Assembly (NCBI GenBank): GCA_936920195.1
Contig: CAKZHE010000229.1
Coordinates: forward strand, 1 to 63,802
Source: an uncultured cyanobacterium
GTDB taxonomy: Bacteria; Cyanobacteriota; Cyanobacteriia; Cyanobacteriales; FACHB-T130
Direction: 5' to 3'
DNA length: 63,802 nt
The notes below the pieces were generated by a model. The model ran no database searches and was not told the DNA's origin. It saw only the letters and a list, made by a program, of their open reading frames with translations. The translations under genes were made by a program, and so were the position numbers. Shown here in pieces: positions 1-17,377 of the stretch; the stretch's first letter is position 1; each line of letters opens with the position of its first letter.

Positions 1-127
1 AAGAAAATGAATAAATGGTTGGGTAGTTGGGCATTTTACCAGCAAGAGCAATTCCTGACTTACAAGGCAGAAGCTTTTATTGGTTTTAAATTTACAGATA
101 TTAGTTTGAATGCGATCGCCAGGGTGT

Positions 128-2938
128 ATGAAAAAAGTATTGAATTGGAGCGCGGTTGGATTTCGCCCAGCACTAAAAGGGAAACTGTGCGATCGCACAA
201 CTTACCAATGTATAAGAGCTAGCGCGATCGCTCTAACTTTTGCCCTACTTAATTGGGGTAGTGCTGTTGAGGCAAATCCCGTTAATCCAATCGTAGTTAA
301 TGGTAGCGTTACTTTTACTACTCCCGATGGACGTACCCTAGAAATTACTAATTCCAATGGCTCTATTATTAATTGGCAAAACTTCTCCATTGATGCTGGG
401 GAAATCACCCGATTTTTACAACCTAGTAGCGATAGCGCCGTTTTGAATCGGATAGTTGGCGGCAACCCTTCCCAAATTCTCGGTACGCTGCAATCGAATG
501 GACAAATATTTTTAATCAATCCCAATGGCATTATCTTTGGTGCTGGCTCCGTCGTCGATGCCCAAAGTTTAATTGCCTCAACTTTAAATTTAAGCGATCG
601 CGACTTCCTCAACGGCAATTATTGGTTTTTACAAACTGGCAGCGGTGCGCCGATAAGCGTGCAACCGGGAGCGCAAATAATTACTGCTAATGGTGGACAA
701 GTTTGGTTATTAGCCCCAAATATTACTCAGCAAGCAGGCAGTCAAATTACCGCACCAGGAGGACAAGTAGTTTTAGCGGCGGGGAGAGCAGTCAAAGTTG
801 CCGAATCAGCTTTGGGAAATATGATTTTTACTGTCACCACCGATGGCAATAATCAACTAGAAACTTTAGGCGCGATCGCGGTTGAACGGGGTGCTGCCGG
901 GTTATTTGCTGATAACATTAATCATGGTGGTAAAATCAACGCGGCGAGCGGACAAATTATACTAAATGCAGATCGAAATTTAACCCTTCAAAACAATGCT
1001 GTAATTAGTGCTGACAGCAATGATGGCAGCGATGCTGGGACAATTAATTTAACTGCGGGGAATCAATTAGAAATTCAGCGGTTAGCGACGGTTTCTGCCG
1101 ATGGTCATAGCAGCGGCGGTAACGGCGGTATAATCAACTTGACTGCCAACGATTTACGGGTGAGTGCCATTGCTAACGGTATGGGCAATATCCGGGCGGT
1201 AGCTCGTCATAGCAGCGCCAGTCATGGTAAAGTAACTTTAACCGAAACTGGGCAAAATAGTTATTTACCCGATGGCACAGAAACTCCAGTTAATAGTTTT
1301 ACCTCTGGTTCTCAAACAGCACCAGCGATCGCGACTTTAGCTGGAGGGAAAGTGGTCGTAACCTGGGAAAGTAATGGACAGGATACGACAGATAACATTT
1401 ACGCTCGCCTCTACGATCCCACCACGAATACTTGGAGTAGTGAATTTATCGTTAATCCTACCACAGCGGTAAGTCAAAATACCCCAGCGATCACCTCCTT
1501 AAACAATGGTAATTTTGTAGTTACTTGGCAAAGTAATGCCCAAGACGGTACAGATAATATTTATAGTCGGATTTACGACGGCAACGGCAATCCTGTCACC
1601 GGGGAATTGCTAATTAATACCACTACCGCTAACGACCAAGAAGATTCTAGCATTACCGCCCTCGCTAATGGCGGTTTTGTAGTCGCCTGGGAAAGTCAAG
1701 CCCAAGATGGTAATAATAAAGGTGTTTATGCCCGAATTTATGATGCTGGGGGCAATCCCCAAACGGGAGAGTTGCAAATTAATTTAACTACCTTTAAAAG
1801 TCAAGATAGCCCCGCGATCGCACCTTTGACAACTGGCGGTTTTGTCATTACTTGGCAAAGCAATGAACAGGACGGCGATCAAGAAGGAGTGTATGCCCGG
1901 ATTTATAATCAAAATGGCATTGCTCAAACTGGCGAAATTGCGGTTAATTCCACTACCGTTAACGAACAAAAAGCCCCTGCAATTACCACTTTAGCCAGCG
2001 GTAACTTTTTGATAACTTGGGATAGTCGGGAACAAGATGGTAACGATAATGCCGTGATTGGCAGAATATTTAGTCCTACTGGTAATCCCCTCAGCGGCGA
2101 ATTTCAAGTTAATACTTATACCCCTGACGCGCAAGATACATCCGCCATTTCTCCCTTAGCTGATGGTGGCTTTATTGTCAGTTGGGAAAGTTGGCAGCAA
2201 GACAGTACCGTTCAAAATGGGGTTTATGGACAAATTTTCAATGCTCAAGGTCATCCCGTGGGCAAAGAATTTCTAGTCAATACTAGAATTATTAACGATC
2301 AAGATAACCCGGCGATCGCCCTCCTCCCCAATGGTGGTTTTTTTGCCACTTGGGAAAGTTACCTGCAAGACGGTAGCAGTAACGGCATTTATAGTCAGCG
2401 TTACGCCAAAGTTACCAATCCCACTTTACCCAACCATCAGGCGACGGGCGAATTTCGTTTAGGTGCTAGTTGGAAAATTCGCCCCAATTTCAACCAACGT
2501 CCTTTAGCCACTCCCTTACCATCCCTGCAAAACTATCCCCAAATTACCGCCGCCTTAGCCACCAACTATGATAAATCTGCCATTCAGCCAAATGCCAGTC
2601 CGTCATCGGCTCAGATAGATTTGCCTGCCTCCCTTGACTGCACTTCCCCCCAACTGGTAGAAAAAAAGAGCGATCGCGAAGTTGAGGAAAAGTCCCATCT
2701 CCGGCATTGCCTTCACGAACAAGCATATAGTCAAATGGTAGGCGCTGCCGAATATCACCTTACCCAAGGAATGTCTTGGCAGGCACGTCAAGCCTATTGG
2801 CAAGAGCGCCAGCAAAAGCAATCTAGTCTGAATACGGCTGAATTTGCCACTTATCTAGAAAATCTGCGCCGCCAGCCAGAGGCAGAGCGCATCCAGTATT
2901 ACGAAACCCTAGCTAAAAATGTAATGGGTTTTAATTAA
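128..2938 (+). CDS. Filamentous-haemagglutinin-type exoprotein (two-partner secretion, TpsA)
   Basis: A 937-residue secreted protein. I chose the ATG at 128 (MKKVLNWSAV) because it opens a long extended signal peptide that ends near residues 45-50 (LLNWGSAVEANP). The TPS/haemagglutination domain follows to about residue 270, with the family signatures NPSQILGTLQSNG, LINPNGIIFG and SLIASTLNLS. Roughly residues 400-800 hold seven repeats of about 56 residues built on GG.FVVTWES..QDG...IYARIYD. The last 140 residues are polar and helical. In the family, an Omp85-type TpsB partner exports the protein through the outer membrane. No TpsB gene is in the window, so the partner must be elsewhere. The target of the exoprotein is unknown. 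Confidence 0.85.
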   Translation: MKKVLNWSAVGFRPALKGKLCDRTTYQCIRASAIALTFALLNWGSAVEANPVNPIVVNGSVTFTTPDGRTLEITNSNGSIINWQNFSIDAGEITRFLQPSSDSAVLNRIVGGNPSQILGTLQSNGQIFLINPNGIIFGAGSVVDAQSLIASTLNLSDRDFLNGNYWFLQTGSGAPISVQPGAQIITANGGQVWLLAPNITQQAGSQITAPGGQVVLAAGRAVKVAESALGNMIFTVTTDGNNQLETLGAIAVERGAAGLFADNINHGGKINAASGQIILNADRNLTLQNNAVISADSNDGSDAGTINLTAGNQLEIQRLATVSADGHSSGGNGGIINLTANDLRVSAIANGMGNIRAVARHSSASHGKVTLTETGQNSYLPDGTETPVNSFTSGSQTAPAIATLAGGKVVVTWESNGQDTTDNIYARLYDPTTNTWSSEFIVNPTTAVSQNTPAITSLNNGNFVVTWQSNAQDGTDNIYSRIYDGNGNPVTGELLINTTTANDQEDSSITALANGGFVVAWESQAQDGNNKGVYARIYDAGGNPQTGELQINLTTFKSQDSPAIAPLTTGGFVITWQSNEQDGDQEGVYARIYNQNGIAQTGEIAVNSTTVNEQKAPAITTLASGNFLITWDSREQDGNDNAVIGRIFSPTGNPLSGEFQVNTYTPDAQDTSAISPLADGGFIVSWESWQQDSTVQNGVYGQIFNAQGHPVGKEFLVNTRIINDQDNPAIALLPNGGFFATWESYLQDGSSNGIYSQRYAKVTNPTLPNHQATGEFRLGASWKIRPNFNQRPLATPLPSLQNYPQITAALATNYDKSAIQPNASPSSAQIDLPASLDCTSPQLVEKKSDREVEEKSHLRHCLHEQAYSQMVGAAEYHLTQGMSWQARQAYWQERQQKQSSLNTAEFATYLENLRRQPEAERIQYYETLAKNVMGFN

Positions 2939-6325: not shown

Positions 6326-7438
6326 CTATTGTACGCATTGAATATTCGCCACGGTCGCTTTCTCGTAGCCAAATATTGGTTTGCCGCTAAAAGTTATCTC
6401 TTCTTGAGCTACTTTCCCAGGGGTTCTAACTCGGTGATAGATAAAATTACCGCATTGCAATTTTTCGTAGCGGTCGGCAAAAATATTTTTATTGACTAGG
6501 AATGGGACGTTTTTTTCAATCTCTTTTCTAGCCGCCAGAGATAGTTTACCTGCTTCTTCCGATTCCTTGGGTGGACATTGGGTATAGTCTAATGGGCATT
6601 CGTACAAGTACAGTTGCTTGGTATTATAATTCGGCTCTTTCTTTTTTATGCTAACAGTAATATTGACAACTCGGCTCTTATTATCTCCATCATAATAGTT
6701 TTCTTCTAAGGTCACTTTTTTTAACAGATTGCCAGTTTTGAGGCTATATTGCTGGTAATAAACACTCAAGTAGCTATTGGTTGAGTGACTCCAAACTGAC
6801 CAGATTGTATCTCCTTCTACATATCTGAGATGGTCTTTCAGATCGCAGTTATAATCCAGATTAGTATTACTATTAATTATTTCTTTGATTTCACCTGTCT
6901 GAACATCGATTTCTTCTACTTTGCAGTCAAATCTTTCATTTCGTTCGCTTTCCAGGTAATATTTGCCCTTGTCAACAATCATTTCTGAAAATGTTGTGGG
7001 ATTTTCTTGTAATTTAAAAATCTTGTTTTTGGTATCCCAAAAGCCAATCTTTTGATCGTAAATAAAATAAATGATGCCATCAACCACGATCGGGCTGCTT
7101 CTCTGATTCACCATTAAATATCCTACATCTACAGGTTGATTTTCTTGATCTAAAACTTGATATCTTTTCTTATTGCCAATAGAAGATTCGAGAATTAGCC
7201 AAGGTTTGGGAGGATAATTTTGCCCATTTAATATGGTTCCTTCTTCTGTAGCTGCCAAAACACTTTTCCAAGCAATTTCTTGCGCCGACGGAGCAATTTT
7301 TTTCGGCTTTCTTCTAGTCATAACTCGTACCACATAATTTTCTTTAATTTCCGTGGGAGTACAGCCTACCATTCCTACTATTAAGCTGGTTAGCAAAACA
7401 CTGAAACCGATTGCCCAAATGGATTTGATTTTGAACAC
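6326..7438 (-). CDS. Putative lipoprotein, unknown function
   Basis: 370 residues. The N-terminus is a lipoprotein signal (FSVLLTSLIVGMVGC), with Cys26 as the probable lipidated residue. The remainder is rich in lysine and beta-strand-like segments (GIIYFIYDQKIGFWDTK, YLSVYYQQYSLKTG) that suggest a beta-propeller-like or repeat fold, but no family was recognised. It carries several cysteines (e.g. DCKVEEI, YNCDLKD, YECPLDYTQCPP), consistent with disulphides in the periplasm. It lies upstream of hflX on the same strand but the gap (about 64 bp) does not prove an operon. Confidence 0.65.
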   Translation of the reverse strand: MFKIKSIWAIGFSVLLTSLIVGMVGCTPTEIKENYVVRVMTRRKPKKIAPSAQEIAWKSVLAATEEGTILNGQNYPPKPWLILESSIGNKKRYQVLDQENQPVDVGYLMVNQRSSPIVVDGIIYFIYDQKIGFWDTKNKIFKLQENPTTFSEMIVDKGKYYLESERNERFDCKVEEIDVQTGEIKEIINSNTNLDYNCDLKDHLRYVEGDTIWSVWSHSTNSYLSVYYQQYSLKTGNLLKKVTLEENYYDGDNKSRVVNITVSIKKKEPNYNTKQLYLYECPLDYTQCPPKESEEAGKLSLAARKEIEKNVPFLVNKNIFADRYEKLQCGNFIYHRVRTPGKVAQEEITFSGKPIFGYEKATVANIQCVQ

Positions 7439-7679
7439 AGTATCTGCACTAATCTAGTTAAAGATGGGTTTTGACTTTACCATCTCGATTCTAACGCGAT
7501 CGCCTGGAAAAATACCTCTGATTAAGAAAAATTATACCCGCAGGCGATCGCTATTAATTGATGGCTCATTCAAACCGGACTTACCCTAAATTCTCCTTCT
7601 TAAAGGTTATTTATAGAATTTATATCCCTTTCTAACTCTATAAGGAAGATGAAATCATACGCTTGAGGCGAGTATCCTA

Positions 7680-7711
7680 TTGACAAATCATTTTATTTGT
7701 GATTTGATAAT
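7680..7711 (+). promoter_or_regulatory. Candidate promoter/operator of the AAA+ cassette
   Basis: A TTGACA hexamer at 7680-7685 is followed by a GATAAT-like -10 at 7706-7711 with a rather long 20-bp spacer. Overlapping it is a nested inverted repeat: CAAATCA (7684-7690) pairs with TGATTTG (7700-7706), and ACAAAT pairs with ATTTGT inside. This is the only conspicuous palindrome in the 380-bp gap between the lipoprotein gene and the AAA+ ATPase. It could be an operator. The rest of the gap (7439-7679 and 7712-7819) has HIP1 sites and nothing else I can support. Confidence 0.35.
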
Positions 7712-7819
7712 ATGGATCGCATGACTAGGCAGCTTTATCAGGGGAAAAGTAGTTTATTTGTTGTAAAAGTAGGCAGCTACGAAAAAGTATAAACGCTTGA
7801 ATAAAGACAAAAATGTTGT

Positions 7820-8737
7820 ATGGGTGGATATATTTACGAAACCAGTGGTCTAGTTCAAATATCTCATGCTGAAATAGAAAAGCGAATCTTCCAGCACAGA
7901 TTATTTGGACTAGATTCCCTTCAAGAGCATTTGTTTCAGTTCTGTAAGGCTGTTCTGATAGCAGATAGTGAAAGAATTCAGGATTTTATCTTTTACGATC
8001 TGGCTCCTTCTATACTTCTTTACGGATCGCCAAACACAGGTAAAACAACTCTTTGTAATTTGCTGTTTGACCGTCTAAAAAAAGAAGTCACCAACGAAAT
8101 AAATTTTTACACTATTGATATTGGAAAGATGCTTGATCCGGCTTTAGGACAGTCATCCCGTAATTTAGAAGAAGCATTTGAGGATCTACGGAAAGCTTGT
8201 TCAGATGGCTCATCGGCATTTTTAGTGCTAGATGAACTGGATTCTTTCTGTATGAGTCGTAGCCGTATTCAAGAACACGATGCTATCCGTCGAGCAATGA
8301 CAACTCTAATATTGGAGCTTGATCGTTTACATCCATCTTCCACAAGAAAATTGATTTTGTGTGGGATCACTAATGTGGAAGATCTCATAGACACAGCAGT
8401 GGTACGTAGATTCTCATTGAAGCATTTTGTTGATGCTAATCTTGACTGGGATGACTTTCGTTGTTATATTGAATATTTGAGTAGGCCAATTAAATACATT
8501 CCTCAAGATCAAGACTTGGAGCAACTATATGATATTTACAAAGGCCGAGCATTCAAATCTGGTGATATAAAAGCTCTTTATAAAACTCTGTTAATTGATG
8601 TAATTTGTGAAGGCAAAAAAATTTCAATTAGGGATAATTTATTCAAGCTTTTTAAAGAGGGTTTTTCTACTAGCGAACATTTAGCTAAAACTTATGGAGA
8701 ATTTGCAAATGGCAGACAGAGAATGGCAAACCGATGA
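7820..8737 (+). CDS. AAA+ ATPase, first gene of a four-gene cassette
   Basis: 305 residues with a single AAA+ module: Walker A GSPNTGKTT (about residues 69-77), Walker B FLVLDELDSF (about 134-143), sensor-1 region CGITNVEDL, and a probable Arg finger in AVVRRFSLKHF. The C-terminal lid is helical. The short N-terminus (about 60 residues) has no recognised domain. It resembles the classical AAA/ORC-like group rather than MoxR or Lon, but I cannot assign a family. The next gene overlaps its end, and three small genes follow on the same strand. The cassette has no HIP1 octamer and looks A+T-richer than its neighbours, suggesting transfer. Inferred role: ATP-driven component of a defence or conflict module. 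Confidence 0.75.
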   Translation: MGGYIYETSGLVQISHAEIEKRIFQHRLFGLDSLQEHLFQFCKAVLIADSERIQDFIFYDLAPSILLYGSPNTGKTTLCNLLFDRLKKEVTNEINFYTIDIGKMLDPALGQSSRNLEEAFEDLRKACSDGSSAFLVLDELDSFCMSRSRIQEHDAIRRAMTTLILELDRLHPSSTRKLILCGITNVEDLIDTAVVRRFSLKHFVDANLDWDDFRCYIEYLSRPIKYIPQDQDLEQLYDIYKGRAFKSGDIKALYKTLLIDVICEGKKISIRDNLFKLFKEGFSTSEHLAKTYGEFANGRQRMANR

Positions 8738-8933
8738 GGATAGAATGATTAACCGCTTAGAAGCTCATAGAGATTTTATTACTTGGGTTATCAAAAGGTT
8801 GAAGGCAGAGGGAATTGATTGTAAGAGAACAACGGGGAATGATTCTAGGGGTGACATTCTTTACTACAAACCTGAAGATGAACCAAGAGTGAAAGAAATT
8901 GTCCGTAAAATTAACTCGGAGTTCAATCAGTAG
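8694..8933 (+). CDS. Small cassette protein 2, 79 aa
   Basis: It overlaps the AAA+ gene by 44 bp, suggesting translational coupling. An alternative start is the ATG at 8709 (MADREWQTDEDR). The protein is charged and helical at first (RLEAHRDFITWVIKRLKAEG), then reads IDCKRTTGNDSRGDILYYK, followed by a final helix. The segment TGNDSRGDIL, after a helix and strand, resembles the region around the first acidic residue of PD-(D/E)xK nucleases. That is an inference from pattern only. No family is recognised. Confidence 0.6.
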   Translation: MENLQMADREWQTDEDRMINRLEAHRDFITWVIKRLKAEGIDCKRTTGNDSRGDILYYKPEDEPRVKEIVRKINSEFNQ

Positions 8934-8945
8934 TAGGAATTTTAG

Positions 8946-9152
8946 ATGCCATACATTGAAATTAAAACCCGCAAACAGATAGATTCGACCTTAGCACAGA
9001 AGATTATTAACAAGCAATGTGTGTCCGCTGTTCTAACTACAGGGGTAATTACAAAGCCAGCCAAAAAACTTTTTGACGACAATGATGTTGCATATGCAGA
9101 AAATGTCCCGGAAAGAATTTTTATGGAATCTGAAGCTCAGGAGGAAGGCTAA
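8946..9152 (+). CDS. Small cassette protein 3, 68 aa, Mrr-like segment
   Basis: Starts 12 bp after gene 2. It begins with YIEIKTRK, containing a Glu-x-Lys pair in a predicted strand, then a helix, then CVSAVLTTGVITKPAKKLFD and a final DVAYAEN strand. The order ExK strand, helix, AVLTTG..TKPAK resembles the second half of Mrr-type restriction-endonuclease folds. If real, genes 2 and 3 would be the two halves of one split nuclease. It could equally be an unrelated small protein. Its stop overlaps the next ATG (TAATG at 9150-9154). Confidence 0.6.
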   Translation: MPYIEIKTRKQIDSTLAQKIINKQCVSAVLTTGVITKPAKKLFDDNDVAYAENVPERIFMESEAQEEG

Positions 9153-9514
9153 TGTTAGAAATGACATTTTATTCACATGACAAAGACACAGTTGAAGTAG
9201 TGGAATTTTCAGAGGAGTTCTATAAGTGGTTGATTAACTCAGATTTCTCCAAAATTGGAAAGTCTGAAGAAAAGGAGATGAAAGGAGATGAAGAAGTTGT
9301 AAAAATTCCAGTGGTTGTTCTTGAAGGTCAAAATCGGAGAAAATTCAGCAATTTCTTTCGCGATGCAATTGTCCAGGCAAGTGATGATATGTTAAGCAAA
9401 CTAGGTAATTCACCTTCAAAGCAGGAATACTTAGATGCTTCCTATTCTCTGAAAATGTTGCAAGAATTACGCAAATTTGTAGAGGATGAAAAAATCAAGT
9501 ATTTGAGCCGATAA
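9152..9514 (+). CDS. Small cassette protein 4, 120 aa
   Basis: Translationally coupled to the preceding gene through a TAATG overlap, with a strong GGAGGAAGG Shine-Dalgarno at 9140-9148. The N-terminal part is strand-rich (EMTFYSHDKDTVEVVEFS). A charged loop (EEKEMKGDEE) follows, and then two amphipathic helices. No known domain, signal peptide or membrane segment is visible. It is acidic and probably soluble, perhaps a partner of the AAA+ ATPase. Function unknown. Confidence 0.6.
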   Translation: MLEMTFYSHDKDTVEVVEFSEEFYKWLINSDFSKIGKSEEKEMKGDEEVVKIPVVVLEGQNRRKFSNFFRDAIVQASDDMLSKLGNSPSKQEYLDASYSLKMLQELRKFVEDEKIKYLSR

Positions 9515-9628: not shown

Positions 9629-11560
9629 ATGACCATAAGTTTACCTGTAGAATTCCAAGATGCCTTTGATGTTGTAGTGGTGGGAGCCGGACATTCTGGC
9701 TGCGAAGCGGCACTGGCAACGGCTCGATTGGGCTGTCGCACCCTGCTGCTAACTTTGAACTTGGATAAAATTGCTTGGCAACCTTGTAACCCCGCCGTGG
9801 GAGGACCAGCCAAATCCCAACTTACTAATGAAGTGGATGCGCTGGGGGGGGAAATTGGTAAAATGGCAGACCGCACCTATTTGCAAAAGCGGGTATTAAA
9901 CTCTTCGCGGGGACCAGCGGTTTGGGCATTGCGAGCGCAAACCGATAAGCGGGAATATGCCGCTGTGATGAAAAATATTGTGGAAAATCAAGCTAATTTG
10001 ACCATTCGGGAAGGAATGGCGACGGACTTGGTTTTAAATGCCAATAATGAAATTATTGGGGTGGAAACTTACTTTGGCGTGGCTTTTCAATGCCAAGCAG
10101 TGATTTTAACCACAGGAACTTTTTTAGGTGGGAAAATTTGGGTAGGCAATAAATCAATGTCCGCTGGGAGAGCAGGGGAGTTTGCGGCAACTGGGTTAAC
10201 CGAAACTTTGAATCGATTGGGTTTTGAAACTGGTAGGTTAAAGACAGGAACTCCGGCGCGAGTAGACCGACGTTCAGTCGATTATAGTCAGATGGAGCCG
10301 CAACCGGGAGATACGGAAGTGCGCTGGTTTAGTTTTGATCCCGAAGTGTGGGTAGAACGGGAGCAAATGAATTGCTATTTAACTCGAACTACGGAAAAAA
10401 CCCATCAATTAATTCGCGATAATTTACATTTATCTCCGGTTTATGGCGGTTGGGTAGATGCCAAGGGACCGCGCTATTGTCCCAGCATTGAAGATAAAAT
10501 TGTCCGCTTTGCCGATAAGGAAAGTCACCAGATTTTTGTGGAACCGGAAGGACGAGATATTCCCGAACTTTATATTCAAGGGTTTTCTACTGGGTTGCCG
10601 GAAAACTTACAATTGGAAATGCTGCGATCGCTTCCTGGTTTGGAACAATGCGCGATGCTGCGTCCTGCCTATGCGGTGGAGTATGACTATTTGCCAGCAA
10701 CTCAGTGCTACCCCACTTTAATGACCAAAAAGATTCCGGGGTTATTCTGTGCCGGACAAATTAATGGGACTACGGGTTACGAAGAAGCGGCGGCTCAAGG
10801 CTTAGTGGCGGGAATTAATGCTGCCAGATTTGTTCGGCATCAGGAAATGATTATTTTCCCTCGCGAACAAAGTTATATCGGCACTTTAGTTGATGATTTA
10901 TGTACTAAAGATTTGCGCGAACCTTACCGAATGCTCACCAGCCGTTCTGAATACCGTTTGTTATTGCGTTCTGACAATGCGGACAGACGGTTAACCCCTT
11001 TAGGCAGGGAAATTGGTTTGATTGATGACCGTCGCTGGCAATTATATGAATCCAAACAGGAACAAATTGCCACGGAAAAAGACCGACTCTATGGGACTAG
11101 AGTAAAGGAAAATGAGGAAGTTGGGAAGGCGATCGCTGCCGATACCCAACAAGCCATCAAGGGTTCCATTACTCTAGCTGACTTATTGCGCCGTCCGGGT
11201 ATCCACTATCTTGACCTCAATCGCTACGGTTTAGGCAACCCAGAATTGAACATTGCCGAGCGAGAAGGCGTGGAAATTGACTTGAAATATTCTGGTTATC
11301 TACAACGGCAACAGCATCAAATTGACCAAATTGCCAAGCAAGAACATCGTCCCTTGCCCCCAGATTTAGATTATGCTGCTATTGCCACGCTTTCCAAAGA
11401 ATCGCGGGAAAAACTTGCCAAAGTCAAACCCCTGACTATTGGGCAAGCAGCGCGGATTGGTGGCGTTAATCCTGCTGATGTGAATGCCTTGCTAGTCTAT
11501 TTAGAAATCCGCAATCGAGGTGTTTCCACGGAAAAATCTCGGCAAATTGCTACTGTTTAG
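9629..11560 (+). CDS. mnmG: tRNA uridine-5-carboxymethylaminomethyl modification enzyme MnmG (GidA)
   Basis: 643 residues, normal family length. With MnmE, this FAD enzyme installs carboxymethylaminomethyl groups at U34 of certain tRNAs. The N-terminal FAD site [15 protein letters not shown] is at about residues 13-27. The family blocks [49 protein letters not shown] and [17 protein letters not shown] are all present. The helical C-terminal tRNA-binding domain ends [14 protein letters not shown]. It lies downstream of the AAA+ cassette after a 114-bp gap that contains a HIP1 site. It appears to be a housekeeping gene unrelated to the cassette. Confidence 0.98.
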
Positions 11561-11880: not shown

Positions 11881-13284
11881 CTAATTATTTCTGAGTAAAT
11901 CAGTCAGATATGTCCGCAATTCATCAGCAGTGAAATACTGTTCTTCTCCATCATGTTTAGCTCGCACTACCCAAGGTTTTGCTGGAGTTGGCGCGATCGC
12001 AGGAATTGTATCGGTTGACTTGCTAAAATCTATACTAGGATAAGGTGTCGATTGACCGCAATAATACAAGAGTTTTGCTTCAACAGCACGAATACACAAG
12101 TCAAGAAGTTTGTCTTCAGAACTGCTCGCAGTTCCGTCTCTCCTGTAAGGCATAGTTTGACTACCGGAAGGTGCTGGGGGATAATCTGGAATTGATGATG
12201 GGTTGTGAGGAGCATGAGACATGGCAGAACCTAATGAACAATCTAGAACAAATATATCCTCTTTATGGACTTGGCTCAAGACTTGGGGAGAGTGAGTAGT
12301 AATAATAAATTGACAATTAGGGAAAGTTCGCCTCAGTGCAGGAATGATTTTTCGTTGCCAACTCGGATGTAAATGCTGTTCAATTTCATCAATTAATACT
12401 ACTGCACTAGCTTGACAAGGATCTGATAAACTAGGATTGGCGATCGCTAGTCTTCTAGCTAAATCCCCAGTCATTGCCAGCAGGCTTTTTTCTCCATCAG
12501 ACAACTGGTTAACAATTAACTCCTCATTTTGCTTTTTAACCGTCATCACTAGCGGATTGCGCCGCACCCGCAAATCGCTGAAGTCTTCTCCCAAGAGAGA
12601 ATATATAGATTTTCTTACCGCCTCCAATTGTTTGTCTATATAGTTGAAGTCATCCCGTCTTTTTTCATTTTCCCAATCCTCGATTGTCCGAAACCATTCA
12701 AAGAAATTTTTAAAGCTAATTTGTACTCCTTCAAGAGCGCCATCATAAGCTTCAGTTTGTTTGAATACATATTTTTCTTTTGCTTTTAAAGATATTTCTT
12801 CTACTGTCCGTTTAACTGGATAGTAAACTGCCAAAGGAACATCAAATAAAGCATTATTTTGCAATTCATTATGAATTTTATTTCCTATTCTATATAATGA
12901 TTTTGATTCGTCAATTTTAGCTTTATCGCTGTTGTCTGTGCGTTCTTTACTTATATTCCAGTCATAAAATTCCGATCCGTCAAGAGAAATTATAATTTTG
13001 CAAAATGTTCGATCGGTTTGGTTTTTAATATCTTGTTCGCTTAAATAATTACCATCAGAAGGATTTTTCTCTCCTCTTAGGGATGTCAATACACTACTTC
13101 TTATTCTTTTAGGAAATTGAATTTTTGCTATCAACCAAGATAGAAGAATTGCCAAGCAGTCAAGAATGCTAGATTTGCCTGAACCGTTAATACCGATTAA
13201 TACAATCAGATTGCGATCGCCAAAATCCAGCGTTAAATCTTCAATGCCTCGAAAATTCTGAATTACTAGCTGATTAACTTTCAT
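11881..13284 (-). CDS. AAA family ATPase (AAA_21/OLD-RecF-like), paired with a DNA methyltransferase
   Basis: 467 residues. The ATG at 13284 has GAGGTGA (13293-13299) at good spacing, so I prefer it to the GTG at 13296. ABC-type head: FRGIEDLTLDFG near the N-terminus, Walker A GINGSGKSS (about residues 31-39), signature LSDGEKSLLAMTGDLA, Walker B VVLIDEIEQHLHP, and switch His in IITTHSPQVLS. The segment between about residues 355 and 400 is Pro/Ser-rich, and the C-terminal 90 residues (ending ADELRTYLTDLLRNN) match nothing I know. No TOPRIM domain is visible. It lies 59 bp downstream of the methyltransferase on the same strand, so the two are probably co-transcribed. HIP1 sites inside it suggest long residence in this lineage. 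Confidence 0.85.
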   Translation of the reverse strand: MKVNQLVIQNFRGIEDLTLDFGDRNLIVLIGINGSGKSSILDCLAILLSWLIAKIQFPKRIRSSVLTSLRGEKNPSDGNYLSEQDIKNQTDRTFCKIIISLDGSEFYDWNISKERTDNSDKAKIDESKSLYRIGNKIHNELQNNALFDVPLAVYYPVKRTVEEISLKAKEKYVFKQTEAYDGALEGVQISFKNFFEWFRTIEDWENEKRRDDFNYIDKQLEAVRKSIYSLLGEDFSDLRVRRNPLVMTVKKQNEELIVNQLSDGEKSLLAMTGDLARRLAIANPSLSDPCQASAVVLIDEIEQHLHPSWQRKIIPALRRTFPNCQFIITTHSPQVLSQVHKEDIFVLDCSLGSAMSHAPHNPSSIPDYPPAPSGSQTMPYRRDGTASSSEDKLLDLCIRAVEAKLLYYCGQSTPYPSIDFSKSTDTIPAIAPTPAKPWVVRAKHDGEEQYFTADELRTYLTDLLRNN

Positions 13285-13343
13285 AATTATCTTCACCTCA
13301 ACCTAATCAAGCGATTTTTTGTCCTGCCCCAAACCAACATCTT

Positions 13344-14282
13344 TTATCTAATAGATTCCCGCCTTTCGGCATTTTTACGATCCAGAAATATCCATTCTTC
13401 CTTGGTCATCCGAGAAACATTTGCTATCCGGTTGAATGCCCAATCATTATATTCCATATTAAGATCGCATCCCATCCAATAACGATTGAGTTGTTCGGCA
13501 ACCACCAACGTTGTTCCTGAACCGGAAAATGGATCTATCACTAAATCTCCTTCATTAGAAGACGCAAGCACCAACTTCCTTAATAACTCTTCCGGCTTTT
13601 GCGTCGGGTGAGGTGTGGTTTCACCCATGCCATTACAAGTAGTAGGAATTTCTATGACATCTTTAGGTTTTGCTCCTTTGGGATGGGGTGTCCAATGGCC
13701 ATATTTTTTAGTTGCTCCTTTTCCGTAAGCACTGGTTGTCGCCTGGGGATGGGAGGGATATTTCAAGGTATGGGCGCTATAGGGAATTCGTACATCGTCC
13801 ATATTTATTTTGACATAATTAGATTTACGAAAATGAATAATACTTTCATGCGATCGCCCCCAGTCATTGCCCAAATTTGCCTTGTTTTTATAGTGCCAAA
13901 TTAACCAACGACAACCCTTAAAATACTTTGCTGCTAGATATTTGATATCAGCTAGAATTTCCGAAAAGCCACAAATATATAGAGAACCTGTTGATTTCAG
14001 AATCCGCGCCGCTTCCTGAATCCATTGCAACGACCATTCAAGATACTGAGCTTGATTTTCAAAGTTATCCCAATCCGCCTTCTTAAGATTATAAGGGGGA
14101 TCGGCAAAAATCAAATCCGCACTTTCAGTTTCCAGAGATCTCAGCCAATCAAGGGAATTTCCTTGATAAATTTGTCCATGAAGATGGGAATAGTGAACTT
14201 GAAAACCTTGGGTTAACGGTTTGATCTCTGGCAGTCTCATTTGTCTGGCTTCACTGACAAGCTCTAGCGAGGGTTGCTTCAT
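13344..14282 (-). CDS. Site-specific DNA methyltransferase, beta class (N6-adenine or N4-cytosine)
   Basis: 312 residues. Motif IV DPPYNL (in LIFADPPYNLKKADW) comes before motif I DPFSGSGTT. That order and the TPHPTQKPEELL block define the beta class (M.HinfI/CcrM-like). DPPY favours N6-adenine methylation. The recognition sequence cannot be read from the protein. No restriction endonuclease is adjacent; the only partner is the ATPase downstream. It may be an orphan methylase or part of an unusual restriction system with that ATPase. Confidence 0.9.
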   Translation of the reverse strand: MKQPSLELVSEARQMRLPEIKPLTQGFQVHYSHLHGQIYQGNSLDWLRSLETESADLIFADPPYNLKKADWDNFENQAQYLEWSLQWIQEAARILKSTGSLYICGFSEILADIKYLAAKYFKGCRWLIWHYKNKANLGNDWGRSHESIIHFRKSNYVKINMDDVRIPYSAHTLKYPSHPQATTSAYGKGATKKYGHWTPHPKGAKPKDVIEIPTTCNGMGETTPHPTQKPEELLRKLVLASSNEGDLVIDPFSGSGTTLVVAEQLNRYWMGCDLNMEYNDWAFNRIANVSRMTKEEWIFLDRKNAERRESIR

Positions 14283-16801: not shown

Positions 16802-17377
16802 ATGGTACAACCAAAGGTAAATAATGTGTATGCAGTCCAAAAAGATGTTTGGCATTTAACCGGACTCGATAAAACCATTGTCGAGCAACTGCTGAGATGG
16901 TCAAACAACCTGTTTAATGTCGGAACTTACGAGAGTCGGCAACGGTACTTTCAGTCCCAAGGCGCAATTAAATATCCGGACTTGTACAAAATAGCCAAGA
17001 CTAATGAAAATTACGCCTTACTCTATTCTCAAGTCGCGCAACAATCTTTAAAGTCCGTTGCTGAATCCTTTAGCTCTTTCCGAGCTTTGTCCAAGTTAGC
17101 CAAGAAAGGAGAACTTAATCAAAAACCGAGACTACCCAAGTACAGGACTAAAGGCGGTATGTACCAGATTTCCTATCCGGGACAAGCCTTAAAAATAGTC
17201 GGCAATCGGGTGAGGCTACCTCTCGGAATCAAAGGAAAGGAATACTTTGGGACAGATGCTCTCTGGGTGAATTTACCAGAACGGCTGAAAAATTGCCGGA
17301 TTAAAGAACTGAGGTTAATCCCTAGAAATGGTGAAGTCTGGGTTGAATATGTCCACGAATCTCTGTTTAAGAATTAG
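16802..17377 (+). pseudogene. TnpB fragment (N-terminal part only), IS200/IS605 type
   Basis: 191 residues matching only the N-terminal, RNA-recognition half of a TnpB RNA-guided nuclease (QSLKSVAESFSSFRALSKLA, KPRLPKYRTKGGMYQISYPG, EVWVEYVHE). The frame ends at FKN just where the RuvC half (GIDLG...) should begin. No RuvC residue or zinc ribbon is present, and I see no continuation before tal. It therefore cannot cleave DNA and is a relic, although its start region still looks expressible (TATAAT at 16792). It interrupts the fbp-tal cluster. It is a different TnpB from the remnant at 28.3-29.3 kb. Confidence 0.85.

What the first reader, a model, noticed from the sequence alone, without database searches (positions are those of the whole stretch)
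7680..9514. Four-gene AAA+ cassette with a possible split PD-(D/E)xK nuclease
Seen: an AAA+ ATPase followed by three small genes joined by a 44-bp overlap, a 12-bp gap and a TAATG overlap. A palindromic operator-like site precedes them, and the cassette has no HIP1 octamer. Gene 2 has TGNDSRGDIL. Gene 3 has IEIK followed by AVLTTGVITKPAK, resembling the second half of Mrr-type nucleases. Inference: genes 2 and 3 may form one nuclease in two pieces, assembled or loaded by the ATPase, with gene 4 as an unknown partner. I know no described system with this exact composition.
Basis: partly seen in the sequence, partly recalled or inferred. Interest (0 to 1): 0.78.

Follow-up and report, generated by a model that had tools for sequence, protein, structure and literature searches.

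The report
Nuclease domain split across two genes
A small gene cluster, mostly in cyanobacteria, appears to encode a DNA-cutting enzyme whose single active site is divided between two separate tiny proteins, nearly always accompanied by a third protein and sometimes by an ATP-driven helper; this would be an unusual way to keep a dangerous nuclease under control.

Summary
The four genes are real. Searches found genes 2, 3 and 4, or their remains, at 38 distinct loci: 35 in cyanobacteria, one each in assemblies labelled Chloroflexota, Spirochaetota and Pseudomonadota. One cyanobacterium (G059) carries genes 2 and 3 as a single 153-codon gene. AlphaFold predicts that natural fusion as one domain (pLDDT 90.7, pTM 0.85), and 12 of its first 20 structural matches are proteins I recall as having the PD-(D/E)xK fold (AF1548, NucS, Cdn1, MspJI, Hjc and others). 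The putative catalytic Asp lies in gene 2 (24 of 24 rows) and the (D/E)xK in gene 3 (25 of 25), so neither protein alone carries the whole site.

The AAA+ gene is less central than proposed: intact in 10 loci, degraded in 2, absent in 26; no close copy elsewhere in 14 AAA-less genomes tested. The core is 2-3-4. Gene 4 has no family match or convincing fold match; it is intact in 6 of 7 loci whose nuclease genes are broken, which hints at an inhibitor or antitoxin role, unproven. Sequence support for the fold comes mainly from gene 3. Cleavage and anti-phage function are untested. A new variant of a known kind.

The parts
7820..8737 (+). gene 1: minimal AAA+ ATPase (305 aa), accessory partner
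   Evidence: PF00004 E 1.4e-20; Walker A GSPNTGKT, Walker B LVLDELD, TN and RRF seen in A13, 10 rows; intact at 10 of 38 loci
8709..8933 (+). gene 2: N-terminal half of the split nuclease domain (74 aa from ATG 8709; 79 aa if ATG 8694 is used)
   Evidence: A12, 24 rows, H20 T41 G48 D49 D57 invariant; fused to gene 3 in L051
8853..8855 (+). codon of Asp49 of gene 2, putative catalytic Asp at the start of the second strand
   Evidence: invariant in 24 of 24 rows; lies just before strand 50-52 of the model; aligned near the Mrr Asp in the profile comparison
8946..9152 (+). gene 3: C-terminal half of the split nuclease domain (68 aa)
   Evidence: A11, 25 rows; AGGA seven bases before its ATG and three in-frame TAG codons between the end of gene 2 and its ATG
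8958..8966 (+). codons of Glu5-Ile6-Lys7 of gene 3, putative (D/E)xK motif
   Evidence: K7 in 25 of 25 rows, E5 in 24 of 25 with D in the remaining row, L066; lies in strand 93-97 of the model
9152..9514 (+). gene 4: constant partner, no family match (120 aa)
   Evidence: A10, 27 rows; model pLDDT 93.6, no convincing fold match; intact at 37 of 38 loci
7678..7712 (.). imperfect inverted repeat upstream of the operon, possible operator
   Evidence: 13-nt arms, 85% complementary, 9 nt apart; none like it seen by eye upstream of the closest relative

Best explanation
Genes 2 and 3 encode the two halves of one small Mrr/NucS-like PD-(D/E)xK nuclease domain, split between the second strand (Asp) and the third strand ((D/E)xK), so an active site exists only when both proteins are bound together. 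Gene 4 is a constant partner, most likely a protein that holds or inhibits the nuclease (antitoxin or immunity-like), less likely a targeting subunit. The AAA+ protein is an ancestral but dispensable accessory that probably remodels this complex, for example by freeing the nuclease from gene 4. The whole is most likely a conflict module acting on foreign nucleic acid. Shown here by computation: operon, conservation, natural fusion, predicted fold, conserved triad, purifying selection, patchy presence of the AAA+ gene. Inferred: physical pairing as two chains, cleavage activity, role of gene 4, role and ancestry of the AAA protein, defence function.
For: Order 2-3-4 wherever the three genes are found. 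Genes 2 and 3 are one continuous ORF in G059/L051. AlphaFold of that natural fusion: pLDDT 90.7, pTM 0.85, order a-b-b-a-b-a-b-a-b with Asp49 just before strand 50-52 and Glu95-x-Lys97 in strand 93-97. VIA-align rows: AF1548 Z 8.1 (99 aligned, 3.7 A), NucS Z 7.2 (94, 2.9 A), VC1899 6.5, Cdn1 6.3, EndoMS 5.9, MspJI 5.4, AspBHI 5.2, Hjc 4.9. Viral predicted structures: five of the first eight hits are named restriction endonuclease (one of them Mrr-domain), the other three have no name; E 6e-3 to 4e-2. An Mrr profile of 15 cyanobacterial rows finds MspJI, AspBHI, AF1548 and, weakly, Rpb5 by sequence, kinds of chain that also head the fold list. Profile-profile comparison with 22 Mrr rows aligns 96 columns with ExK on QxK and the two Asp regions together (Prob 27, pairwise E 6.5e-4; reversed control Prob 0.8). 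Triad conserved. dN/dS below 0.5 in 29 of the 32 gene comparisons where it could be computed. Gene 4 intact at 6 of 7 loci with a broken nuclease pair. Restriction-type neighbours for 4 of 9 chosen neighbour proteins.
Against: No Foldseek match to a solved structure at E <= 0.001; the first hits are chaperonin chains. Z 8.1 is within what unrelated models can reach (note). Gene 2 alone has no profile signal to Mrr above the reversed control (Prob 0.79 against 1.36 with all rows; up to 6.9 with one reversed subset), so the sequence link rests on gene 3 (Prob 33 alone); Mrr subsets taken apart give the fusion family only Prob 0.3-6.7, and for one subset the reversed control is as good (3.3 against 3.8). 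The session tool's hhalign with 15 Mrr rows gave Prob 12.6 over 20 columns of gene 3. Pfam hits to Mrr_cat and NucS_C are chance level, one of 41 members each at E 0.043 and 0.084. The fusion is known from one genome. AAA is missing at most loci. Many loci lie between housekeeping genes. No biochemical data.
Confidence: 0.6

Rival explanations
1. A toxin-antitoxin module: the split nuclease attacks the host when released and gene 4 is the antitoxin; the AAA+ protein or a protease sets the release. Phage defence would be one use among others.
For: Compact operon at scattered chromosomal sites; gene 4 the last to decay (intact at 6 of 7 loci with broken nuclease genes) and with a second copy, whole or broken, at seven loci; patchy spread.
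Against: Toxin-antitoxin pairs rarely split the toxin in two (recalled); no family match of gene 4 to an antitoxin.
Confidence: 0.25
2. The restriction-endonuclease fold is kept only as a scaffold, as recalled for Rpb5, and binds nucleic acid or protein without cutting.
For: Six of the first 20 fold matches are RNA polymerase chains that I take to be Rpb5; no activity is known.
Against: Asp, Glu/Asp and Lys are kept even in L040 and L046, whose gene 2 is 20-27% identical to the window's, and the one change seen, E to D, is the one the motif allows.
Confidence: 0.12
3. A vertically kept DNA-repair or DNA-processing nuclease, like NucS/EndoMS, rather than a conflict system.
For: NucS and EndoMS are among the first five fold matches; the site between purA and rplY recurs in several genera.
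Against: Patchy: 14 of 386 cyanobacterial genomes, and only the already known genome in samples of 247 and 201 from the phyla of L067 and L064; decay at 7 of 38 loci.
Confidence: 0.13
4. Genes 2 and 3 are separate proteins with separate tasks; the fusion in G059 and the one-domain model are misleading.
For: Only one fusion among 34 loci with both genes; the alignment given to AlphaFold held 9 read-through rows that present the halves as one chain; gene 2 alone shows no similarity to Mrr above control.
Against: The query was a natural single gene; the first fold matches run across both halves (model residues 19..150, 19..145, 20..148 of 153); the motif residues of one site are divided between them.
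Confidence: 0.08

Closest known systems
Mrr-type PD-(D/E)xK nucleases (PF04471 Mrr_cat; solved relatives by profile: MspJI, AspBHI, AF1548)
   Same: Predicted fold, order of the Asp and xK motifs, and the TTG..T..AK strand-helix after the xK strand
   Different: Two genes instead of one; ExK rather than QxK; a helix of gene 2 and the chain break lie between strands 2 and 3; no added domain; no Pfam match above chance
NucS/EndoMS repair endonuclease
   Same: Among the first five fold matches, over both halves (Z 7.2 and 5.9)
   Different: One chain (recalled); sequence match only one of 41 members at E 0.084 to NucS_C
BbvCI and other two-subunit restriction enzymes
   Same: A nuclease made from two gene products
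   Different: In BbvCI each subunit contains one catalytic site (abstract of PMC6326814); here one site would be shared by two chains
McrBC and other AAA+/GTPase plus PD-(D/E)xK systems (recalled)
   Same: A ring ATPase gene beside a PD-(D/E)xK nuclease
   Different: Gene 1 matches PF00004 and no McrB model is listed for it; it is absent from most loci
IetAS (AAA+ ATPase IetA with a protease; partner recalled)
   Same: IetA models are the best PADLOC hits of gene 1 (E 1e-19)
   Different: 61 bits against a cut-off of 510 for the NCBI model; the partner genes here are unrelated small proteins

Membership tests
PD-(D/E)xK nuclease superfamily (genes 2+3 together) | restriction-endonuclease core fold | tested here: met
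   AlphaFold model of the natural fusion with VIA-align and viral Foldseek matches; predicted, not solved, and Foldseek against PDB gave nothing at E <= 0.001
PD-(D/E)xK nuclease superfamily (genes 2+3 together) | conserved Asp ... (D/E)xK | tested here: met
   D49 in 24 of 24 rows; E or D at 5 and K at 7 in 25 of 25 rows; distances in the model could not be measured
PD-(D/E)xK nuclease superfamily (genes 2+3 together) | metal-dependent phosphodiester cleavage | not testable with these tools
   needs protein
Mrr_cat (PF04471) | score over the Pfam cut-off | tested here: not met
   one of 41 members at E 0.043
Mrr_cat (PF04471) | profile-profile similarity over the catalytic core | tested here: inconclusive
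   Prob 27, E 6.5e-4 over 96 columns with 22 Mrr rows, carried by gene 3 (33 alone) and not by gene 2 (0.8 alone); Prob 12.6 over 20 columns with 15 rows
IetA antiphage ATPase | score over the NCBIfam cut-off | tested here: not met
   61.2 bits against 510
IetA antiphage ATPase | adjacent protease IetS (recalled) | tested here: not met
   the adjacent genes are 2-4, without a protease match
toxin-antitoxin module | toxin neutralised by antitoxin | not testable with these tools
   only an indirect decay pattern
anti-phage defence system | enrichment beside defence genes | tested here: inconclusive
   restriction-type matches for 4 of 9 chosen neighbours and near the window cassette; housekeeping genes at many loci; no formal test

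The most novel reading that the evidence does not exclude
A nuclease controlled by assembly: the active site is cut between two polypeptides that must be brought together, gene 4 holds them off or idle, and an AAA+ machine, where present, switches the complex. This would be a defence or abortive module in which completing the catalytic site is itself the switch.
Probability: 0.3. Interest if true: 0.82.

Novelty: new variant of a known kind. Interest (0 to 1): 0.62.

Why it matters
Two-subunit restriction enzymes are known, but in the one I looked up each subunit has its own catalytic site. A natural split through the core of the PD-(D/E)xK fold, kept across cyanobacteria and seen in assemblies of three other phyla, would show that cells use division of an active site as a safety device, would offer a natural split nuclease of about 140 residues for engineering conditional cutting, and would give three orphan protein families a testable function.

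Tried and rejected
Rejected or led nowhere: (1) Viral or plasmid origin: no relatives of gene 1 or gene 3 in viral contigs, none of gene 3 or 4 in plasmids, none of gene 3 in phages; gene 1 matches 169 plasmid records, all under 60% identity, the listed ones 24-29% and where named CDC48-type or other ATPases. (2) Four weak gene 3 matches in small-genome cyanobacteria of family f47 are longer proteins resembling DUF1893 (name recalled), without a trio; dropped before counting (18 matches to 14). A match in G579 is an unrelated 183-aa protein, thioesterase-like (recalled); dropped. (3) Family searches of genes 2-4: nothing credible in Pfam, PADLOC, PHROGs or NCBIfam; single chance-level hits of gene 3 relatives to nuclease families (PHROG restriction endonuclease E 0.018; NucS E 0.062). 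(4) Gene 4 fold: only loose matches such as PadR, Z 5.6; one odd profile hit to the ATP synthase subunit ATPTB3 at E 4e-4, unexplained. (5) Chaperonin apical domain as the fold: head of the Foldseek list, but Z 4.7 or less. (6) Empty insertion site next to mnmG: in none of 11 relatives do the window's neighbours or flanks match upstream of mnmG, apart from very short stretches, so no empty site could be shown. (7) Operator and HIP1 arguments: weak. (8) AAA presence and nuclease integrity: nuclease pair broken at 0 of 10 AAA-intact and 7 of 28 other loci; Fisher one-sided p about 0.09 by my own arithmetic; not significant, not corrected for kinship. (9) Sparing of gene 4 at six decayed loci: about 0.02 if breaks fell by gene length (my arithmetic), but the loci are related, several are draft or metagenome assemblies, and most were found through gene 3. 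(10) Rows dropped: the gene 2 rows of L040 and L046 were left out of A9 because they misaligned in A8, and some gene 3 rows were trimmed at the N-terminus there; L040 and L046 have no gene 4 in A10 and enter the tree with gaps.
Full report
What is there. The window lies in a 5.7 Mb draft genome of 326 contigs; its relatives are cyanobacteria. Between an ORF on the other strand (6326-7438) and mnmG (name recalled; 9629-11560) lie four + strand genes: an AAA+ ATPase of 305 aa, and small genes of 74 (or 79), 68 and 120 aa. Only gene 1 matches known families: PF00004, with generic AAA+ models such as IetA, TRIP13 and CDC48 behind it. Genes 2, 3 and 4 have no credible match in Pfam, PADLOC, PHROGs or NCBIfam.

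The cluster elsewhere. A gene 3 profile has matches in 18 of 386 cyanobacterial genomes; four are unrelated, leaving 14 with the window's own, one of them (G231) a remnant. A gene 4 profile over the phylum sample of the same size finds 12 genomes, all among those 14; the two not found, G011 and G223, have a divergent gene 4. A pattern scan of one genome for each of 84,980 bacterial and archaeal species gives 27 loci: 24 cyanobacterial, and one each in assemblies labelled Litorilinea (Chloroflexota), Leptospiraceae (Spirochaetota) and Thiomargarita (Pseudomonadota), all three metagenome-assembled, so mislabelled contigs are possible. With 11 loci from the first searches (14 genomes less four seen again in the scan, plus G036) that makes 38 distinct loci; one species, Microcoleus LEGE 07076, has two. 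Samples of 247 and 201 genomes from the phyla of the Leptospiraceae and Litorilinea loci hold only those same genomes. No relatives in viral contigs, phages or plasmids by the searches made.

The split nuclease. Genes 2 and 3 are both recognisable at 34 of the 38 loci. At 33 they are separate genes, in the same reading frame at 11 and in different frames at 22, so the split is natural and not a sequencing error. At one, G059 (L051, 8162-8623 on the - strand), they form one open reading frame of 153 codons. That natural protein, with 40 other rows (9 read through between the genes, 14 of gene 2 alone, 17 of gene 3 alone), gives an AlphaFold model of pLDDT 90.7 and pTM 0.85, elements in the order a-b-b-a-b-a-b-a-b. 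Asp49, invariant in gene 2, lies just before the second strand and Glu95-x-Lys97 in the third, the classical places of the PD-(D/E)xK motif (recalled). In the structural comparison 12 of the first 20 entries are proteins I recall as PD-(D/E)xK: AF1548, NucS, VC1899, Cdn1 (two entries), EndoMS, MspJI (two), EcoT38I, AspBHI, Avs4 and Hjc; six more are RNA polymerase chains that I take to be Rpb5, a recalled relative of this fold; the other two are HcgD. The best Z, 8.1, is not beyond background by itself; the agreement of the list is the argument. In predicted viral structures five of the first eight hits are named restriction endonuclease, one of them Mrr-domain, and the other three have no name. 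A profile of 15 cyanobacterial Mrr rows finds MspJI, AspBHI, AF1548 and, weakly (E 0.1), Rpb5 in the PDB by sequence, which ties the fold list to the Mrr branch.

Limits of the sequence evidence. Profile-profile alignment of the fusion family with 22 Mrr rows (three of 25 fetched were left out) covers 96 columns, with ExK on QxK (Prob 27, pairwise E 6.5e-4; reversed control Prob 0.8). The signal sits in gene 3 (Prob 33 alone); gene 2 alone is no better than the reversed controls (0.8 against 1.4, and 6.9 for one reversed subset), and smaller Mrr subsets give 0.3-6.7. Foldseek on PDB finds nothing at E <= 0.001 and lists chaperonins first. The case for gene 2 rests on the fusion, the model and the invariant Asp.

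Conservation. Over 24 gene 2 rows His20, Thr41, Gly48, Asp49 and Asp57 never vary. Over 25 gene 3 rows Lys7, Ala17 and Glu52 never vary, and position 5 is Glu in 24 and Asp in one, Calothrix L066. This includes the divergent loci L040 and L046. Of 34 pairwise gene comparisons dN/dS could be computed in 32 and is below 0.5 in 29; the others are L061/L069 gene 2 (1.40) and gene 3 (0.59) and L042/L043 gene 3 (0.50), all pairs with few changes.

The AAA+ gene. It is intact at 10 of 38 loci, degraded at 2 (L056, L083) and without trace at 26. A profile search of 14 genomes from the AAA-less group finds no close copy elsewhere: the best match is E 1e-23, against 1e-112 or better for the true members in the same call. 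On a tree of 27 loci the label needs 5 changes, at least 2 forced by well supported branches (midpoint root only). Because it occurs on both sides of the deepest split, and because two loci hold remnants, I read it as ancestral and repeatedly lost; this is inference. The ATPase motifs are present, but the pore-loop position reads ALG, SLG or ELG in place of the aromatic residue that I recall for threading AAA+ proteins. So the idea that the ATPase assembles the nuclease is not generally tenable; a modulating role is.

Gene 4. It follows gene 3 wherever both are found and is intact at 37 of 38 loci. The model is confident (pLDDT 93.6), two strand pairs and two long helices, without a convincing match. 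At seven loci the nuclease pair is broken: gene 2 alone at L049, L070, L071 and L080, gene 3 alone at L078, both at L050 and L083. Gene 4 is intact at six of these seven. Seven loci carry a second gene 4 copy, whole at L071, L073, L075 and L079 and broken at L072, L076 and L078. I counted as intact L047, whose gene 3 ends early, and L079, whose gene 3 stops four codons short. The pattern is what one would expect of an inhibitor, but the sample is small and related.

Setting. Several loci sit between purA and rplY, others beside acnB, lpxB, proB or 5-oxoprolinase genes (purA, rplY and acnB named by Pfam at one locus each, the rest recognised by eye). Some have restriction-type neighbours: a type ISP restriction-modification ORF that begins directly after gene 4 in L067, a C5 methyltransferase converging on gene 4 in L057, an HNH protein upstream in L063, a DndB/DpdB-like protein 1.4 kb upstream in L062, and in the window a PtuA-like ATPase and a type II methyltransferase 2.4-4.8 kb downstream. 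Four of nine neighbours that I had picked as promising matched PADLOC; this is no enrichment test.

Verdict. Most likely a two-piece Mrr/NucS-like nuclease with a constant partner and an optional AAA+ helper, acting against foreign DNA or as a toxin-type module. I hold the fold and the split at about 0.9, catalytic activity at about 0.7, the whole explanation at 0.6; the checking of this report mended counts but did not move these odds. Literature searches in open-access PMC found no description (of PMC6326814 I saw the abstract and outline; other papers only in listings).

Noticed in passing
window 11881-14282 (-): A PtuA-like AAA ATPase (PADLOC PtuA E 2e-123) next to a type II DNA methyltransferase (E 8e-68); I did not look for a PtuB or restriction enzyme beside them.
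   Followed up: no
window 16802-17377 (+): A 191-aa ORF that looks like the N-terminal part of a TnpB/IS605-type protein (recalled), apparently truncated.
   Followed up: no
L044 13642-14438: A XisH gene (PF08814, E 5e-50) followed by what looks like XisI (recalled), another small two-gene cassette of unclear function; a similar XisI-like ORF lies downstream of the trio in L060 (8432-8752).
   Followed up: partly
L035-L038 (same places as L052-L055): Proteins of about 160-290 aa from small-genome cyanobacteria with a weak local match to gene 3, resembling DUF1893 (recalled).
   Followed up: partly
L071, L072, L073, L075, L076, L078, L079: A second gene 4 copy directly downstream of the first, whole at four loci and broken at three.
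   Followed up: partly
L044, L062, L083: The cassette or its remnant lies beside an aconitase B gene at three loci, as the purA-rplY site recurs at others: a few fixed chromosomal sites seem to be reused or inherited.
   Followed up: no
gene 4, window 9152-9514; profile A10: Profile hit to the ATP synthase subunit ATPTB3 (6tdu_B) at E 4e-4, without an explanation.
   Followed up: no
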